In this document: positions 42,849 through 63,190 of the stretch, piece by piece
How positions within the stretch are numbered: the stretch's first letter is position 1
Layout of the letters: each line of letters starts with the position of its first letter
DNA from: Aphrocallistes beatrix
Taxonomy: Eukaryota > Porifera > Hexactinellida > Sceptrulophora > Aphrocallistidae
Direction: 5' to 3'
Assembly (NCBI GenBank): GCA_963281255.1
Contig: OY725493.1
Location: 2,417,550-2,481,549 of the forward strand
DNA length: 64,000 bases
The notes under the pieces: generated by a model
The model's database searches: none
Told to the model about the DNA's origin: nothing
The model's input: the letters and a program-made list of their open reading frames with translations, nothing else
Made by a program: the position numbers and the translations under genes

Positions 42849-43464
42849 AAAATATTGCGACAACAGTCACCTGATATTTCAAAGCCAAATGTGACCATGA
42901 CCAACCGTTGGGTCATGACGTCATTAGAATTGAATACATACGAGTATAATATAAGTGTTAATTCATGATATTAAATTCTACAAATTACTAATAGTGCTTC
43001 CGATCTTCTGGAATTTCAATGTGCAGAGGAAACCTGGAATCCATACAGTTTAATGCGATGATTTCGAGTCTTGGTCAAACCTGTTTATGATTATTGTCCA
43101 ACAAATTTATGAATTCACCACAGAGCTGAGATTAACATCCAGTGAAACCAAAACTTAGTTTTCCGCGGATGATGATGAATATGTACTAATATAATATAAC
43201 TAATTAATTGATATCACTTATGATTAGCCAATGCGAAAATAAATGTAATATGGTTTCAAATGAAAATAGCATATTTCCAAAATATAGTCATATTTAAATG
43301 ATAAAACTATCTAAAATCAATAAAATTTGATACTTATACAATTCACTGTCAACAAATCGATTTGGTTCATTTGATGTCTGCAGATTACTCGAATGGTCAG
43401 TTTTTATTCTTAGGATTTCCATCATAGCTAAATAGATTTTAAAATTCTTTTTTTTTAATTTTAG

Positions 43465-46400
43465 AAGATGATGATAACAAATTTATCATTTGTCAGAATC
43501 TACCGTCGAAGATACTAAATGCTTTATCGAAATTTGAATTGTGTGAATTCACTGTACTGGAAAATCTTAGCCTGACTAGAAATTGGCGTAATCCGTTTGG
43601 TTTCTGGGGAAAGCTCGCAAAGATGGTATATGGTCGAAATCGTCTAGAACTACGAGCAAAGCTTATGAATATATGGCGCAACAACAGATACAACATTCAA
43701 TCACAGGTTCAAACAAATTTTATCACTACATCCTTACCTATAAGTATTAAATTTTCTGATCTACCGTGTGAAATTTCTTCAGATTTTGTAAGTATATCGT
43801 GTCCAAGTTCGCCATTAGCAGAAAATAATTTTCGTGATGATGCAATCTTATCAAATAGGAATGATGCAACCCATGAGATTGAACAAGGCGAAATTCATTT
43901 AACAATGCATGAATGGTTAATAATCTCAAAGTTTTTGGAAATTAAGAACAAATTAGAACCAGAATGGACAAACATATTGAATGAAAAGATGTCAATGAAA
44001 TATCCATTTTGTGTACTAAAGTTCTTATATCATAGGATTAATAAGAATAGTACAAATAGCAATAAATGCTCTTTTCTTGTAGCTGCCGCAATTTGCAAAT
44101 TTAGCGATTGTTTTAAGTTCAAGTTTATAATGGAAGAACCTGAAACGAATGCAAATAATGTTTTCGTAATTACATATTTTGTCACTGGATCAATTTCAAA
44201 AGATCATTTCGCGAATCATGTATCACAAAGCCGTCATTTAGCAGGCGAGAGAAGGGAAACTATATCTGAACAACTCGAGAATAGAAGTGTTTCAAATTTC
44301 CATTATTCTCTGTTCACTAAACCTGACATTTTTACTGCTGCGAAACATGGTAACTTTAATTCTTTGCATTCAACTGATGTACTCAGAAAAGTAAAATCCC
44401 AACACATGTCAAAATCCAGGTTTAACAATGACATGTGGCAAGACATAGTCAGTACCCAACTATCTTTTAAAAGCACTATCATAGGTGACAAAATGAATGG
44501 TTATATTCAAACAATATCCCATACTCCATTCGTAATTCACTTGTATAGCGAAGAACAAATCTCTTTATTGAAATACTTGGAGAAGAAAAGTTTGACATTT
44601 CATCTTGATGCAACTGGCTCGGTCGTTAGAAAGTTAGAGAAGTCTCAAGATAGAATACTCTACTATGCGCTATCTGTTCAACATCCTGAATCCCGTGTAA
44701 GCCCAATTCCACTTGCAGAAATGATATCAAGCAAACAAACAAATGTGGAAATATCACATTTTCTTAAGCAGTGGCTATATGATGTCAAGAAAGTTACAAA
44801 CAGTGAAGTTACACCAAGTCAAGTAGAAGTTGATTATAGCTGGGCAATGTTGCACAGCGTTTGCAATAGTTTCAATAAACAAACTCTAGAAGATTATCTG
44901 GCTACATCTTGGCAAGTTATTCATACTCCAAAATCGACCAAACCCCCGAAAACGATCATTCACATATGTTCAGCACACATCATGAACCGCTTAAGCTACA
45001 AACTCAGCCGTAAATTTAGAATCGATCAACTACGAAAAAGAAAAGTCATGTTTATAATGGCACGATTTGTTAGCTGTACAGCGTTAGACGAACTGAAGCA
45101 ACTTTTTGTTGCATTATGTATCACAAGTCTAGCTAAAAAGTATTACCCAGAAATTGAGGATTTTTTTCATAAGCTTGACAATGCCATTAGCCTAAGTAAT
45201 GACGAATATAATATTGATCTGGAATATTTGGAAGACCTTGATGAAGAACTAGACAATAATTTGGGAGATAGCAATACCTATAAAACAAGATCACCATTTG
45301 GTATCTATTTTCAGAGCGAACTAAACAAATGCACACAATTTATTACTGAATTAGAGAAGAAAAAACGGACCGACCATTGCAAGGAAAACATACACTTTCT
45401 ACCGAGTCTACCCACATTCTTAGTAACACATTACATGCCCATATGTTCCCTCTGGTCAGGAATCATATTAGGTCCGAATTTATTTCCAAATAGTGCAAGA
45501 ATTACATTTACAAATGCGGTCGCTGAGAACTGGATGAGAATTGTCAAAATTACAATATTACAAAACGAATCCAAACTAAGGCCGGGAGATTTTATTCGTA
45601 AAATACGCGAAGGCATTGTCGGTAGAATCAGAGCATTTCGGTTTGCATTCGAACCATTAAGTGATAAAATTATAAAAAGAAGAAAAATAAAATTCAGAAG
45701 CGATGATCAAATAGAAGAAATTTGGGCGAAAAAAAAAAAGAAGCGAAGTTATTTTGAACCTGGAAAGGTTTCAACTTCTCAACCACTATCCAATCGAATC
45801 CCTGTCATCCCTCCTTGTTCTGAATGCCTATCTACAAGTGATCGCAATCCTTCAGCTGAACTTAAACCAATCGGAAAAAGTGGAGCAATGCATTATGATG
45901 ATAGCCTTGATGACGAACCTATCTCCGTTGAAGGGATTACATTCTTTTATCACGGAAATTTCAAGCCAGTAACACAAAGCTGGCAGAAAGAAAAATGCAA
46001 ATTTCTGCAAATGACGTATACAAAGGGTGTTTTGTATAAGAACGAAGCTATTGAAAAATCCCTGGAAATTCGACAGCTAATACCTTCTAGAGAGAAAAGA
46101 ATCTCACCAGATGGCAATTGCCTATTTAGATCACTCTCTTACGTAATTGCAGGGACAGATAGCTACCACCAACAAATAAGAGGGCTCTTAATACAAAAAA
46201 TGAAAGGAGAATATAGAGAAACATGCTCCAAGTATTGTAAAGCTCGAAATGATTTGCTACCCGAAGCGCGTTGCAACACAATAGAAGAATATCTCAAAAT
46301 AAGCTTGATGGACCGATTAGGATCTTGGGGTACTGACTTAGAAATATTCTTAGCAGCACAGATCCTAGGTACTGACATTTTTGTCTACAAAGATGAAAGC

Positions 46401-46568
46401 AAATGTTGGATGAAATTTTCAGGGTATGGGTTCAATGATAAACATTCTTCTCATAACCTGACAGAGACTAGGATTTACCTGAGATTGTTTAGAGATCATT
46501 TTCAACCGGTAATACAGGTGAAAGAAGTTGGAAGCATACAAATTGGATCACAAACCAAACTAATTTGA
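43465..46568 (+). CDS. Transposase with C-terminal OTU domain
   Basis: An uninterrupted frame of over 1,000 codons begins after a splice acceptor (poly-T tract then attttag at 43464), so at least one short upstream exon is likely; no good initiator ATG is visible. Candidate DDE residues are Asp in FHLDATG (near 44608), Asp in VEVDYSWAMLHS (near 44828), a CSAH motif (near 44968) and Glu in AVAENWMRIVK (near 45520). The C-terminal part is an OTU cysteine protease: catalytic SPDGNCLFRS (Cys near 46120) and a final His in RDHFQ (near 46496). OTU proteins cleave ubiquitin chains; here the role would be in transposition or evading host control, which is inference. TGA at the end; no internal breaks. 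Confidence 0.85.
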
Positions 46569-49245: not shown

Positions 49246-49844
49246 ATAGAAGGAGATTGTATTATTATTTATCCTCCTCTTCTACCTAAATTATTTTTTG
49301 AGCAATTAATATTATACTATTACTAATCATTTTCTTCAACTAGAAGCCTTTTAAATAGTTGTTTTTGCGGGCATGCCTAATTTACGGGACGGGACGAGTC
49401 AAGATGCCTAATTTACGGGACGGGACAGCAAAGGTGCCTAATTTACGGGACGGGACAGAAAAGGTGCCTAATTTACGGGACGGGACGGGTTAAGATGCCT
49501 AATTTACGGGACGGGACGGGTTAAGATGCCTAATTTACGGGACGGGACGGGTCAAGATGCCTAATTTACGGGACGGGACGGGTCAAGATGCCTAATTTAC
49601 GGGACGGGACGAGTTAAGATGCCTAATTTACGGGACGGGATAGAATCATTCCGGAAAACTTTTGTCAGTACTTAATTTGCGAGACGGGACAAAAATACCT
49701 TACTATACAGTCGAGTCGATTCAGTGTATTGTGACACTTAGTCATCTTATTATTCACTAGACTACGTATATTCTATTAACTATGTATGTTATTCATTATA
49801 TCAATATTTATTCTACAATTCACAATATAGTTATGTACGTACTA

Positions 49845-49930
49845 CAGTGAAGATTGGATATAACGACAAATCGCAAATAACGACATTTTTCTCTTGCCCG
49901 ATAGTACGTCGTTATATCCAATCTTCACTG
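49845..49930. mobile_element. 86-bp hairpin MITE
   Basis: The ends cagtgaagattggatataac and its exact inverse are flanked by TA. Only about 40 bp separate the arms. Confidence 0.85.
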
Positions 49931-50065
49931 TATATAATTATTCGGGTACAATGAATCCGCTTAATCAGAACACATTGGGTCGTGATACTTTGTCCCGATT
50001 AAGCAGAATTCCCAATTAACCAATAGTATTTAATACTAAATTCTATGTATGAAAACTATTCTACT

Positions 50066-50159
50066 CAGGGGCGTTCCCAAGGGGGGGGGCATCCGGGTCA
50101 TTTTCCCGAGTTTGTTTCTCCGCTTGCCCCGGTTTAGAAAATTCTTGTGACCGCCCCTG
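50066..50159. mobile_element. 94-bp hAT-like MITE
   Basis: The ends caggggcg and cgcccctg are inverted repeats with flanks attctact and attctatt (7 of 8 identical), as expected of an older hAT insertion. Confidence 0.65.
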
Positions 50160-50509
50160 ATTCTATTCCTGGATATTTAAGCAGTTTTCGCGATTAATCG
50201 ATGTCACAATACCTTGAATCGACTCGACTGTATAATTAGGTATTTTTCTGTCCCGTCCGGCAAATTATGTACTGACAAAGTTTCCGGAATGATCCTGTCC
50301 CGTCCCGTAAATTAGGTACCTAGATTTTCCGGGATGGTTCCGTCCCGTCCCGTAAATTAGGCATCTTAACTCGTCCCGTCCCGTAAATTAGGTACCTAGA
50401 TTTTCCGAAATGGTCCTGTCCCGTCCCGTAAATTAGGCATGCCCGTTTTTGCGCAGATTGTGTAGAAATTTGTGGTTTTACACTTGAGATTCTAGATTTG
50501 TATCGAAAT

Positions 50510-52290
50510 TTTGTGCAGAATGGTCTACTTTGGCCTATCAAACGCACGAAAATATCGCTGAAATTGTCTTCAAAAGAAGTTTTTCTTCCTAGAAGTGTAC
50601 GAAATCTGGAGACATATTTGTGACAGGATTCCAGACCTTCTGAAAAATCCTTTAATCCTTTCCCACCGTTGTATAGATCAATCAAGTCTGAAGAATGAGC
50701 CAAAATTTTATGTACAGTTGGGGATATGTGTGCAAATGGTAAATTTTCAAGAATTGTCTCTCATAAGTTTCTTTGCAGAGATAATCGAGTTCTTCCGTAT
50801 TGATTTTTTGGCCACTGTTATAAATACGTAGAATTGCTCCCAAATTATTATACAAGGTTTCAATCACGTCATGGTGTTCACTGGGCAGAATTGTCAAAAT
50901 CCAATAAAGGAAATCTTTCTTAGAATCGTCATCCCTCAACATATACCTTCCCACCACATTCCCAGTAGTTGAAGTTCCACCTTGAGAAGTTGGTTTGCCA
51001 ATAGCGATGGAAAGTTTTTCTTCGATTAAGGAACGAATACATTTATTTGCCTCGATTACGTCATGATAACTAGGCTGCCATTTATTAGTTTTGCCTGTTT
51101 GTAAATGACACAAAAGTGCCTTAAACCAAGCAAAAGCACGCAGATATGCATGCAAAGGAGATGCAGATATAATATTTTCATTAGAAGTTGGTTTGTTAGT
51201 GATTCCAAGTCTTTCAAATGAAGGCAAAGCTAGAAATTCTTGTGAATTCACTGACTCGAACAGGCTCTTAGCATCTTCAATGTTTCTGTTTATTGGATAT
51301 CCCTCGCGGACAAAGTCAATATCGTGGCATTGTTGGAAATCAGCAGTGCAAAGCTGACACCAAGCACCAACAGCACCTGATAACAATTTATACATTTTGG
51401 TATCAAATTGGGATCGAGTAAATTTACAAAACAGTTTGCCATAAGAGGTTTCAATCCCATTCTCTTTTAAACCTTCGGTTTCATGATTAATCAAAGCGTC
51501 CATAGCAAACGACATTCTGATATGTTTCTGGCATAGACAACAATCCAATTGGCCTCAGGCTAAAAGCAGAATTCGATTTTTACTTTTCCATATGCATTTA
51601 TTACTTGCATCCGTTATTGCAAGGCACCTAAACCCAAGAAAAAGAATAATTTCTATCCAAGTTATGTGGTAGTTCCTGTTGGAATTTTGAATGTGATCCT
51701 GATCTATCAAGGCCATCGCATAAATGTATTTCTCCAGGAAAGTCGAATCGTTGTAAATTTGGAATATCGTCGAGCAACTCCTGAACAGTTTGAGTAACGA
51801 TTGTTCTATAAGATATGCCAACTCCAACGGTTTGAGTGAAAGGAACTGGGACTGAGAAAATATCTTTAGTTAAGCTTACTTGTTGTCTGTATGCAGATAG
51901 TTTTTTAGTACCAGACATTTTGACATCCTCTGAAGCAAACATTCGTCTGAGTTCGATCTCTCACCGATTTCAAGAGAATCAACGAGGTAAGAACATTTTT
52001 CAGTACCAGTTTCAATTATATCTTGACATAATTTTGAGCTTTCAAAATCATAACATTTTCGAGAAACATTGTTAAGCATAGGCTGCAATTATTTTCGGAG
52101 TCTCCTTCTCGTATTCCGCAATTGAATATGATCCAATAAAGATTGCAAACGATATTCCAATCCTTTGTGGGTCAATTCTCTTAGCGATTTTCTTAGATCT
52201 TTATTAAAATCCTCTTCAAAAAATTGCTTCTTCCAATTATCAGTTAGAACAGATTGTGTTGGACATGTTGGTTGATCCTATCTAGATCAA
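50510..52290 (-). pseudogene. Decayed RAG1-like transposase
   Basis: Reading the minus strand across frames gives a RAG1-core-like protein. It shows LCDGLDRSGSH (first catalytic Asp region), CLAITDASNK (second Asp region), a zinc-ribbon-like WCQLCTADFQQC, SASPLHAYLRAFAWF, GTSTTGNVVGRYML, ILPSEHHDVIETLYNNLGAI, PTVHKILAHSSDLI and finally FSEGLESCHKYVSRFR. The order and spacing follow RAG1/RAG1-like proteins, and the SEG-ES-K-RFR ending is nearer RAG1 than Transib. Frameshifts near 51690 and 50715, one further upstream, and an in-frame TGA near 51557 show decay. The third catalytic acidic residue (Glu) seems absent. No RAG2-like frame is seen nearby. Confidence 0.78.
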
Positions 52291-52377
52291 TCGTATAAAT
52301 GAATGATCTAGCCAAATCTGATGTATATATCTCGTAGGCTTCTCGAATCGTCATTATTACACTGTTATTATTACGAG

Positions 52378-52575
52378 CATGTAACGAATTGATTGAATAA
52401 ATTGCCAGGCACAGAAAGCTGATTTTTGGTATGTGGGAATCTTTTCTGACCTCAGACGAAAATGTCGACTCATCATGGAATTATGACTTCATAGTCACCT
52501 TTTTTTGTAATTAGAAATTTCAGTTTTTCGACTATAACTCAGCCATTTTGGGTGATAGAAGGCTGAAAATGGGAG
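52378..52575 (+). repeat. Truncated copy of the ~500-bp repeat family
   Basis: Starts gtaacgaattgattgaataa and continues through the ctgattttt and gtcgactcatcatggaattatgac blocks, then stops matching near 52575. Confidence 0.75.
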
Positions 52576-52854
52576 GAACAAAGTCTGGAGAATAAGGAAG
52601 ATGTGGCAGGATTTCAAAGCCACATCTGGCAGCAATGGTGACCGAAACCTGCGCCGTGTGAGCAGGAGTCATCAAAACTAAGTTCTGTGGTTTTGACAAC
52701 TCTTTTTTTTCTCAACAGAAATGTAACTTTTCCTTTGAGTATCTTCACAAAATCTTGCACATGTGCACAAAAATGAATATATTTTCTGATGAAGGGAAAA
52801 TTTTGCCAAAAAATATTTTTTTGAATGTGAGGTTAGAACATTTTGAACGTAGTA

Positions 52855-53092
52855 TCTGTAACGAATTGATTGAAGAAACTGCCAGACACAGAAAGCTGAT
52901 TTTTGGCGAGTCTTTTGGCTATGAACTCACTAAATTCTGACCTCAGACGAAAATGTCGACTCATAATGGAATTATGCCCATCATTTCACACCTACATGCC
53001 AATTTTCATATCTCTACGACTTGCCAATTCTTCATTCAATTCGGACAAACAAAAAAACAAAACTAAAATCCTAGCATTTTAATATATAAGAT
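52855..53092 (+). repeat. Repeat fragment fused to a second repeat terminus
   Basis: The stretch 52857-52977 matches the 5' part of the ~500-bp family (gtaacgaattgattgaagaa). At 52978 it switches to the tttcacacctacatgcc to ttttaatatataagat block also found at 29405-29503, so a recombination or insertion junction lies at about 52978. Confidence 0.65.
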
Positions 53093-53160
53093 ATTTGTTT
53101 AAGGATGTTATTGTTATGATTGCTTTTACTGAGGTTTCTCAATCTTTTTTAAAGATTTAA

Positions 53161-53715
53161 GATTATCCTTACTATTAAAACTCGATTAATGTGTATATAT
53201 ATATATATAGTATAGTATATCTGTAACGAATTGATTGAGGAAACTGCCAGGCGCAGAAAGCTGATTTTTGGTATGTGGGAGTCTTTTGGCTATGGCTCCA
53301 CTAAGCTCTGAGCTCAGAGCAAAATGTCGACTCATCATGGAATTATGACGTCATTGTCACATTTTTAAAAGTTAAGCAATACAGTTATTCGAGCATCACT
53401 CAGCCATTATAAGAGATAGAAGGCTGAAATTTTAATAGAATCTGTACACTAACATACCTCACATGTGATGCAACTATCATCAAAAAATGATGACTCATCA
53501 CTTTGTTATGACGTCATCATTACTCATCGAAATTTTAAAAATTGATAAATTTGGTGATTTTTCGTGCGATATCGATTATACAGTAGGACAGACGTATTTA
53601 GAGATGTTATCTCCCTTATAATTAACCAATGTGGCCCCAGGCAACCGAAGGGAGCCTCCGGCGGACACAATGTGTCCGCCAGCCGCGCAGCGCAAGCAAG
53701 CGAAGCGCGCTTGTA
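53161..53715 (+). repeat. Full-length copy of the ~500-bp repeat family
   Basis: Starts with atccttactattaaaactcg, has a short TA run, then the gtaacgaattg body, and ends in the gcggacac stem and the caagcgaagcgcgcttgta hairpin. Confidence 0.85.
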
Positions 53716-61015: not shown

Positions 61016-63190
61016 CTACGAGTTCATCCTTTTGTAAAATAGTAGGGTGTAGTAGAAAGTTGATACGTGTCTGGTCATATCTCTCCAGAAGTAACTCCTT
61101 CGTAGCAATCGAAGAGTCCGCGCCTGACCAAAGTGGGTTTCTGAGTGGATTCTCTCCAGTACCTCCTGCTGCAGCCCTTTCGGTACCACCAGCATGTCCT
61201 GATAGTACAACACCCCTTCACGGATCTTAAGTTCGTGAGTCACCCTTCTCAACTGGCCGTGTACAACCGAGCCTGACTCTAATAATTGTGCAACTGTATT
61301 CCGCACAACCACGTCCTTTCGCTGCGCCCTTTCAACCTGTCTATCCATTGCTCTTGATCCTCGATCTTGTAGACTTTCCTCTCGAAATCATCCTCGATAT
61401 TAACCTCTTCATCGACTTGTATCTGGGAAATGCGACTGAGGTAATCTGGAATTGCGTTCTGCGCCCCCGGCCGATAGCGGATTTCATACGGGATTTCTTC
61501 TAACTCTAACAGCCATCGCGCAAAGGTATGTCTTGGATCCAGTTGACTCCGCAACCACTTGAGGGGATTGTGGTCTGTAACGAGGATTACCTTTCGCGAC
61601 GCCTTCAAATATATTCCCACTTGCGTAACCTCTACCAGAGCCCAGGCTTCCAACTGGCCTGCTGAATAGTTTTTGTGTGCTGCCGACAATGCTGAGGAGA
61701 AATAGCACACTGGTTTCAGAATTCCGAACGTTCCGTCCACTTGAGATAAAACGGCTGCTATTCCCTGCGAGCTTGCATCGGCCTCGATGTAAAATTCTTT
61801 TTCCCACTGCGGGAATGCTAACGACACCGGCTCTTGGACCAGCTTAGTTCTCAACTCGTGGAACGCCCTCCTACATTCTTCAGACCAACTCCATACGCGC
61901 TCTTCCGAGTTAACTGGTACAACGGCTCTGCAACCTGCGCGAGCCTTTGAATGTAGCTTCTGCAATAATTTAGACTTCCGAGGAACCGTTGAAGCTCACT
62001 CACAGACTGTGGTTCTGGAAAATAGCTCAGTTTCTCGATTGTAGACTGTACAGGCCTCCTACCCTCTGCTGATACGTGATGCCCAAGAAAGACACCTGCC
62101 TTGTATCCAAAATGTCACTTGTCTCCTTAACCTGACGTTTGCCCTCCTCATTCTCTCGAAAGTGTCTTTCAGGTCTTTGAGGTGTTGGTCAAAATCTGTT
62201 GAAAACACAACAATCGTCCACGTAGGATTCTGCTCTATCTAATCCTTCCAGGGCGTTGTCCATCAGCCTTTGAAAAGTTGCCTACGAATTGCAGAGACAG
62301 AAGGGCATGACAACCATTTCGTACTGGCCTCTGGACGTACTGAACGCCGTCTTCTCTACTTCCTAAATCCTTACTGGTACGCAACAGTACGCGCTCGCTA
62401 TCTCAATGAAGGAAAAATAACGGCTTCCTCCCAACTTATCTAATATTGAATTCATATTAGGAAGGCTATAGGCATCTTTCTTTGCAACCCCATTTGATCT
62501 CCGGTAATCGATTGCGAAACTTCCATCTCTTTTTCTCACTAGCACCACGTTAGAGGCCCAAGGCGAATGGGAGGGTCGGCATACGCCATTCTTTAGCATT
62601 TCCTCCAGCTGCCTCTCGATTTCCACCTCCAATTTAGGCGGTACCCTTCTTGATCTTTCCTTGATCGGAGCTGCATCCCCTGTTTCAATGGCATGCTCGC
62701 ACATGTTTGTCCTAGAGGGTAGTTTTGGATCGGCCGCGAAGAGGTCTTCGTTCTCCTTTACCAGCTGGGATAAACGCTTAAGCTGTTCCAAATCCGTACA
62801 AACGTCAAATTCCCCTGATGATAGCTCACACATGGCGATCCTGCTGTCCTTAACTACAGTTTGTGCCCGAAACAACGCTGTTCCACTCGATATCTTCGAT
62901 TCAATCGGTACCCATGTGTCTCCCATTCGTATACGCTCATTCCTCCAGTTTCTTTCTCCTACCAGCAAGCCAGTCTGTATAACTCCCAACACATCCACCG
63001 AACTTTTCCAGAGCCCAAATACTTTGGAAACGCTTTTCAGGCCTGCAGTTAGCTCTCTAGTCGCCACTACGAGTGAAAAGGCAGCAGTACAGCTTTTACC
63101 AGCCTACCTTTCACGACGTGAAGTCGAGAGGACCCAGACGTTAGAGGCGATAAAGAAAGACACTCTGGATGGTGCCTTTAAACAATAAGA
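61016..63190 (-). pseudogene. Ty3/gypsy pol region, broken
   Basis: Minus-strand order is: region before RT and RT fingers (63067-62363), RT palm with an intact YVDD (about 62345-62195), an RT/RNase H junction, RNase H (61965-61279, with EADASSQG and VTDHNPL) and an integrase zinc-binding segment with the H-H-C-C-like start (61348-61016). Breaks: a frame change after the RT fingers, an in-frame stop in the palm just before the YVDD block, another near 62190, frame changes near 61970 and 61300. The integrase catalytic core and both LTRs were not found, so it is truncated at 61016. Asp of the first RT motif reads Glu (FSFIEIAS). Confidence 0.85.

What the first reader, a model, noticed from the sequence alone, without database searches (positions are those of the whole stretch)
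50510..52290. RAG1-like transposase fossil
Across several frames the minus strand encodes almost all of a RAG1-core-like protein: CDGLD and TDASN catalytic-Asp segments, a C-x-x-C zinc element, LPSEHHDVIETLYNNLG, PTVHKILAHSS and a SEG-x-ES-x-x-K-x-x-x-RFR end. The last block resembles RAG1/RAG1-like proteins more than Transib (usually SEEAQEARNK). RAG1-like elements outside bilaterians are few, so a copy in what may be a non-bilaterian animal would matter for the origin of V(D)J recombination. The third acidic residue seems lost and the frame is broken.
Basis: partly seen in the sequence, partly recalled or inferred. Interest (0 to 1): 0.88.

Follow-up and report, generated by a model that had tools for sequence, protein, structure and literature searches.

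The report
Dead Transib transposon in glass sponge
This stretch is the broken remains of a Transib "jumping gene", a cousin of the enzyme that shuffles antibody genes, in what looks like a glass sponge; better-kept relatives in the same genome have ends built much like the antibody-gene cutting signals, which bears on how that system began.

Summary
In detail: window 50497-52354 (-) is a frame-broken transposase fossil, one of about 94 related loci in a 100.5-Mb assembly. The mitochondrial contig has glass-sponge hallmarks (PMC2267718), so the non-bilaterian guess holds. The family is Transib rather than RAG1L: an intact relative matches HzTransib (E 1.6e-23) better than BbRAG1L (4e-10) or vertebrate RAG1 (4e-4), and complete elements carry one gene, no RAG2L. 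TDASN is not catalytic, and all three acidic residues survive. The family is the real find. Five subfamilies have complete elements with ends starting CACAGTG (one of ten ends CACAATG). Pooled over the five, the two ends share a second box offset by 9 bp, 10 and 19 bp after the heptamer (0 of 1000 shuffles): clear in three, partial in one, absent in one. Their N-terminal segment finds the RAG1 nonamer-binding domain as top hit of the whole PDB (E 1.3e-5). The 10/19 spacing equals that computed from the published pelagophyte RAGL ends. New member of a known kind (close to "Subgroup I" Transib), unusually informative about the origin of the 12/23 rule.

The parts
50497..52354 (-). Fossil transposase coding region of a Transib element, frame-broken, without its terminal inverted repeats
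   Evidence: tblastn with L007, L011, L018 covers 52232-50497; start at 52354 by eye; no heptamer left nearby
52122..52199 (-). Segment aligned to the NBD-like region of intact copies (DLRKSLRELTHKGLEYRLQSLLDHIQ)
   Evidence: alignment; NBD homology shown for intact copies
51706..51708 (-). First catalytic Asp (second D of CDGLD)
   Evidence: column shared with the D of LDG in intact copies and of CDG in mouse RAG1
51402..51404 (-). Second catalytic Asp (RSQFDTKM)
   Evidence: aligned to RSQLDGKM of L007
51348..51359 (-). C-x-x-C zinc element (CQLC)
51162..51308 (-). Zinc-domain insert (REGYPINRN...ISA), equivalent to the RAG2-binding alpha11-alpha12 region of RAG1L and missing from HzTransib
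50695..50712 (-). H-x4-H zinc element (HKILAH)
   Evidence: same spacing as HKTLAH in mouse RAG1
50629..50631 (-). Third acidic residue (Glu of GLESCHK), still present
49339..50440 (.). Tandem and inverted repeats on the 3' side (31-bp units, inverted arms of up to 76 nt)
52380..53429 (.). Three-copy interspersed repeat on the 5' side, directly against the fossil

Best explanation
It is a dead copy of a single-gene Transib DNA transposon in a glass sponge genome that holds several Transib subfamilies, one of them recently active. Shown by sequence: homology, the three acidic residues, the broken frame, intact paralogues, element ends, target-site duplications, one gene per element. Inferred from what is known of RAG1, HzTransib and ProtoRAG: the transposase of intact copies binds both ends as a dimer (heptamer by the core; a second box 10 or 19 bp further in by the NBD-like segment), nicks next to the CAC, forms hairpins on the flanking DNA, and inserts the excised element with a 5-bp stagger. 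The window copy no longer does any of this.
For: Homology of the fossil to intact copies and its place among them (96/93). Transib affinity. Ends and duplications: for the L018 group the ends were set by loss of homology, and the 5-bp duplication is exact in 3 of 4 copies; L007, L011, L155, L027 and L008 have exact duplications, but their ends were found by a search that asked for them. The genome holds 16 exact matches to the bipartite end and 0 to the reversed control. One ORF per element. Copies 99.3-99.8% identical, dN/dS 0.14-0.59 in 6 of 9 pairs, 3 saturated. Host: with PMC2267718 (passages).
Against: Only three reference proteins with solved structures (HzTransib, BbRAG1L, vertebrate RAG1) could be compared; no outgroup and none of the published Subgroup I Transib proteins were at hand, and in the tree the long reference branches meet. 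L007 passes Pfam's RAG1 cut-off. The zinc-domain insert and the C-terminal knuckle link these proteins to RAG1L. Host naming rests on mitochondrial traits.
Confidence: 0.9

Rival explanations
1. A RAG1L gene from a RAGL (RAG1L-RAG2L) transposon.
For: Zinc-domain insert and, in L018, L011 and the L027 subfamily, a Cx2Cx3GHx5C tail close to the Cx2Cx3GHx4C of RAG1L (motif from PMC7204232 passages); L007 over Pfam's RAG1 cut-off.
Against: Best match is HzTransib by a wide margin; 19-22% identity to RAG1/RAG1L, within the Transib range of Martin et al. (under 22%); no RAG2L in complete elements; no RAG2 family match at E up to 1 (no positive control).
Confidence: 0.06
2. The fossil was a domesticated host gene rather than a transposon copy.
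For: Several core motifs survive, and the three acidic residues are intact.
Against: Frame broken; many blocks of the same subfamily at 75-97% identity elsewhere; hemmed in by other repeats.
Confidence: 0.02
3. Contamination: the sequence is not from the animal that gave the mitochondrial contig.
Against: Matches lie on 17 of 28 contigs, deep inside contigs of 3-12 Mb; the window also holds an Argonaute, a muniscin (muHD/FCH) and a TGF-beta receptor-type kinase.
Confidence: 0.01

Closest known systems
Transib, Subgroup I (Tao et al. 2022, PMC9435367, main text read; Hydra, ctenophores, bacteria)
   Same: Single RAG1-like transposase, equivalent of the alpha11-alpha12 region, NBD, C-terminal zinc knuckle (CTT1) in some subfamilies, asymmetric ends, 5-bp duplications
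   Different: Host is a sponge; knuckle has 5 residues where the published RAG1L motif has 4; one lineage, the window copy's, lacks it. Their protein sequences and figures were not seen, so sequence kinship is untested.
Transib, Subgroup II (HzTransib, PDB 6pqn)
   Same: DDE core, best sequence match in the PDB
   Different: HzTransib has only 13 residues where the sponge proteins have about 48 (zinc-domain insert); its ends are said to be symmetric (PMC8289069 passages)
RAGL transposons (ProtoRAG of amphioxus; AanRAGL of a pelagophyte)
   Same: Heptamer-like ends starting CAC, 5-bp duplications, second box; AanRAGL's boxes (13 bp, spacers 4 and 13) compute to 10 and 19 bp after the heptamer, the same as here
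   Different: They carry a RAG2L gene; the sponge elements do not
Vertebrate RAG1 and its 12/23 recombination signals
   Same: NBD by sequence, DDE core, exact CACAGTG heptamer, one short and one long spacer
   Different: 10/19 instead of 12/23; the second box differs between subfamilies and is not the RSS nonamer; no RAG2; transposition, not joining of gene segments

Membership tests
Transib superfamily | RAG1-like DDE core nearer to Transib transposase than to RAG1/RAG1L | tested here: met
   (three reference proteins only)
Transib superfamily | 5-bp target-site duplication and ends starting CAC, close to the RSS heptamer | tested here: met
   met in intact relatives; the window copy itself has lost its ends
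[quoted passage not shown]
   no second ORF above 123 aa in L018, L007, L011 elements; Pfam shows no N-terminal zinc domain in them
Transib Subgroup I | Equivalent of the alpha11-alpha12 region in the zinc domain | tested here: met
   also in the window copy
Transib Subgroup I | CTT1 zinc knuckle | tested here: inconclusive
   Cx2Cx3GHx5C in L018, L011, L153, L155; degenerate in L003 and L154; absent in L007, L021 and the window copy
Transib Subgroup I | Asymmetric terminal inverted repeats | tested here: met
   pooled +9 offset, 0 of 1000 shuffles; clear in L018, L011, L008, partial in L007, absent in L027
Transib Subgroup I | Phylogenetic place in that clade | not testable with these tools
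   no published Subgroup I protein was available; prokaryote and viral collections gave none
RAGL transposon (RAG1L-RAG2L) | RAG2L gene inside the element | tested here: not met
   genome-wide RAG2 searches negative but without positive control
RAGL transposon (RAG1L-RAG2L) | Core nearer to RAG1/RAG1L than to Transib | tested here: not met
Vertebrate RAG1 | Nonamer-binding domain | tested here: met
   the first 16 of 22 PDB rows are RAG1, best E 1.3e-5; the GRP motif is not seen
Hexactinellid host | mtDNA with atp9, AGR read as Ser, UGA for Trp, +1 frameshifts at rare UGG codons in cox3 | tested here: met
   against PMC2267718 (passages)

The most novel reading that the evidence does not exclude
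Glass-sponge Transibs keep a working '10/19 rule': each element pairs one short-spaced and one long-spaced RSS-like end, with a CACAGTG-type heptamer and a second box read by a RAG1-type nonamer-binding domain, without any RAG2. The logic of the 12/23 rule would then predate both RAG2 and immunity, and would still be running in a non-bilaterian animal.
Probability: 0.5. Interest if true: 0.75.

Novelty: new member of a known kind. Interest (0 to 1): 0.5.

Why it matters
Where the heptamer-spacer-nonamer design and the 12/23 asymmetry came from is unsettled. PMC8355894 (passages) says that 12/23 asymmetry is recognised in jawed vertebrates only when RAG1 is complexed with RAG2, and that the only other transposition known with it is that of some Transibs. 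PMC4411706 (passages) says autonomous Transibs are absent from most animal genomes or present in few copies. A genome with several complete subfamilies, three near-identical intact copies and a 9-bp offset kept across diverged subfamilies would let one test directly whether spacing asymmetry needs RAG2.

Tried and rejected
Rejected: RAG1L membership (see rivals). Rejected: the loci at C3:2317262, C12:482329 and C3:1719645 that match BbRAG1L at 48-50% over about 57 residues; the two I read (L154, L155) are internal-deletion derivatives of the L027 subfamily, the third was not opened. Rejected: the weak RAG2-PHD hit (E 0.45), which lies in a protein with several PHD-like fingers on reading its frame (by eye).

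Led nowhere: relatives in prokaryote, viral, plasmid and phage collections. The search for related loci confirmed none of 39 and 129 pattern stretches; plasmids and phages gave no match; 97 pattern loci (74 + 23) held no profile hit at E up to 10, and a repeat with L018, L007 and L003 added as positive controls found those three and again none of the 97. So bacterial Transibs could not serve as outgroup. Ends were not found for L028, L021 and L003 although flanks were fetched, nor for the other loci scanned save L155. The second box is clear in L018 (10/10), L011 (9/10), L008 (7/10), partial in L007 (6/10), absent in L027 (4/10); taken alone, L007 and L155 are no better than shuffles (1543 and 369 of 2000 reach them). 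The RAG2 core of mouse did not find amphioxus RAG2L in the PDB, so RAG2 searches by sequence are weak. No RNA family or tRNA in the window. Structure prediction was not run: its rule admits window proteins and loci of other tools, not those of the genome search, and the window's broken piece alone would model poorly.

Full report
1. Observation. The minus strand of about 50497-52354 encodes a decayed transposase in several frames. Its pieces alone are nearly invisible to Pfam (only one of six pieces touches RAG1, E 0.061), and the longest piece finds nothing in the PDB at E up to 1. Against intact copies from the same genome the homology is overwhelming: tblastn E 2e-91 (L007), 2e-85 (L011), 4e-68 (L018). 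The alignment corrects two details of the finding. TDASN aligns to a non-catalytic stretch (ISDIHSN), and the second catalytic Asp is the D of RSQFDTKM. The third acidic residue is present (SE-GLESCHK against SEEGLEASNK). The C-x-x-C and H-x4-H zinc elements are present too.

2. The family. The genome (G000, 100.5 Mb, 28 contigs) holds 135 matching segments at E up to 1e-3, about 94 loci when those within 4 kb are merged (a lower bound). Some frames are intact, measured from stop to stop: L018, L020 and L022 734 aa each, L007 727 aa, L011 761 aa. In the tree (16 rows) the fossil pairs with L005 (100/100) inside a clade with L007, L009, L008 and L021 (96/93); the sponge set as a whole has 87/85, and the long reference branches meet, so the deep part is unsure. 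Other blocks of the fossil's own subfamily lie elsewhere at 75-97% DNA identity.

3. Transib rather than RAG1L. L018 finds HzTransib (1.6e-23), BbRAG1L (4.3e-10) and vertebrate RAG1 (4.4e-4); L007 likewise 2.8e-25, 1.3e-9 and 2.9e-6; the profile A2 gives 140, 52 and 49 bits. Identity is 26-27% to HzTransib, 21-22% to BbRAG1L, 19% to mouse RAG1, while BbRAG1L and mouse RAG1 share 35%. Against this reading: L007 passes Pfam's RAG1 cut-off (26.8 against 25 bits; L018 and L154 stay below, L011 and L153 show no RAG1 match), and the zinc-domain insert and, in some subfamilies, the C-terminal knuckle are shared with RAG1L and not seen in HzTransib. Tao et al. 2022 (PMC9435367; main text read; figures and supplements not seen) describe this combination for their Subgroup I Transibs.

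4. Element anatomy. Comparing four near-identical copies placed the ends by loss of homology: elements of 3412-3425 bp, both ends CACAGTG, 5-bp duplications exact in 3 of 4 (CAAAT, GAAAA, CCATT) and one base off in L020. The 5' end reads CACAGTGGTTTA-GAACC-AAAGAATAGG; the 3' end, inverted, CACAGTGGTTTA-AAAACACAGTTAGT-AAAGAATAGG. The genome holds 16 exact matches to this bipartite pattern (9 short, 7 long) and 0 to the reversed control. A finder that asked for heptamer-like ends with at least 4 of 5 duplicated bases gave, each with an exact 5-bp duplication, L007 (3005 bp, TAGCC) and L011 (3065 bp, TTAAG; a second, weaker candidate pair exists), L155 (1883 bp, ATAGG), L027 (3330 bp, CAAGA) and L008 (3744 bp, CGTCT), and nothing for L028, L021 and L003 or the other loci, most of them with short flanks. 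Since the finder asks for duplications, they are independent evidence only in the L018 group; for L155 the ends agree within one base with a BLAST boundary against L154.

5. Asymmetry. Pooled over L018, L011, L007, L008 and L027, the match between the two ends beyond the first 12 bp peaks at an offset of +9 (score 39, next best 26); 0 of 1000 shuffles reach it at any of 29 offsets. At the fixed 10/19 register the matches are 10, 9, 6, 7 and 4 of 10. So the geometry is clear in three, partial in one and absent in one. Single-family shuffles support L018 (15 of 2000 reach the score, 0 at the same offset) and L011 (31 of 2000, 1 at the same offset), not L007 or L155. In the families that show it, the short spacer is at the 5' end of the gene. 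The published AanRAGL boxes (13 bp, spacers 4 and 13) compute to the same 10 and 19 bp after the heptamer (my arithmetic). The sequence of the second box differs between subfamilies and is not the RSS nonamer.

6. A RAG1-type NBD. A profile of the N-terminal segment of five copies (87 positions), searched against 177,635 PDB sequences, returned 22 rows at E up to 10. The first 16 are all RAG1 (best 3gna, 1.3e-5, which I recall as the NBD-DNA structure); the first other row is a designed helical repeat (0.0033). BbRAG1L and HzTransib are not among the 22. The GRP motif of the RAG1 NBD is not seen. That this segment reads the second box is inference.

7. No RAG2 in the elements. The elements L018, L007 and L011 hold no second ORF above 123 aa. 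PF03089 gave nothing at E up to 1; PF13341 gave one weak hit, in a multi-PHD protein. Neither search had a positive control, so a divergent RAG2L elsewhere in the genome is not excluded.

8. Activity and selection. The L018-group elements are 99.3-99.8% identical to L018. Nei-Gojobori dN/dS is 0.14-0.59 in 6 of 9 pairs; the other 3 are saturated at synonymous sites. Recent transposition is likely; it was not observed.

9. Host. Contig C28 (17,996 bp) carries the only COX1 match and an ATP9 frame (recognised by eye). In the matched part of cox1, 11 AGA codons stand where I do not expect arginine (by eye), and Trp is TGA 11 times and TGG never; over the whole cox1 and cox2 frames TGG is also absent. 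The cox3 frame continues in +1 at a TGG followed by GGA, and again at a second TGG 15 codons on. PMC2267718 (passages) lists these traits for hexactinellids: atp9 kept, AGR as serine, UGG rare and used as a +1 shift signal before GGA. The species is not known to me.

10. Literature. Transib with 'glass sponge': 0 papers. Wider searches (20, 12 and 10 rows shown of 36, 105 and 603) and Transib with Amphimedon (5 papers, none opened) showed no title on Transib in sponges. The two glass-sponge genome papers have 0 occurrences of 'Transib' in the listing (PMC10280926, PMC10282587; not opened). Only open-licence PMC papers are covered, and Kapitonov and Jurka 2005 was not held.

11. Verdict. The window object is an ordinary transposon fossil. 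The family around it is a new, well-preserved case of RAG1L-like Transib with RSS-type asymmetric ends in a non-bilaterian animal.

Noticed in passing
L154 1168-1866 (+); L155 (minus strand, about 1300-2010 in locus coordinates); G000:C3:1719645: Internal-deletion derivatives of the L027 subfamily that join the transposase N-terminus to its C-terminus (in L154 as one 233-aa frame); L155 keeps both ends and an exact duplication. Could encode a repressor, as truncated P-element products do (recalled analogy).
   Followed up: partly
G000:C13:1098915 (+) and 1104537 (-): Two short-type (5') Transib ends facing each other 5.6 kb apart, with no long-type end between them in the exact pattern search.
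   Followed up: no
L007, L021 and the window copy, C-terminus; L007 and L008 ends: The clade without the C-terminal zinc knuckle has ends starting CACARTGGCACG instead of CACAGTGGTTTA/GTC, as if tail and end sequence changed together.
   Followed up: no
window 49339-50440: 31-bp tandem units (GCCTAATTTACGGGACGGGAC...) with inverted arms of up to 76 nt on the 3' side of the fossil, a fold-back-like repeat.
   Followed up: no
window 43443-46568 (+): 1041-aa open frame with an OTU-like cysteine protease domain near its C-terminus (Pfam E 3e-9) and no other Pfam match.
   Followed up: no
window 61279-63103 (-): Retroelement fragment: RNase H domain of a reverse transcriptase in 61279-61995; described only.
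   Followed up: no
L040 (contig C28) 8806-9590: cox3 with two +1 frameshifts, each at a TGG followed by GGA in the new frame, 15 codons apart; A. vastus is described with one in cox3 and one in nad6.
   Followed up: partly
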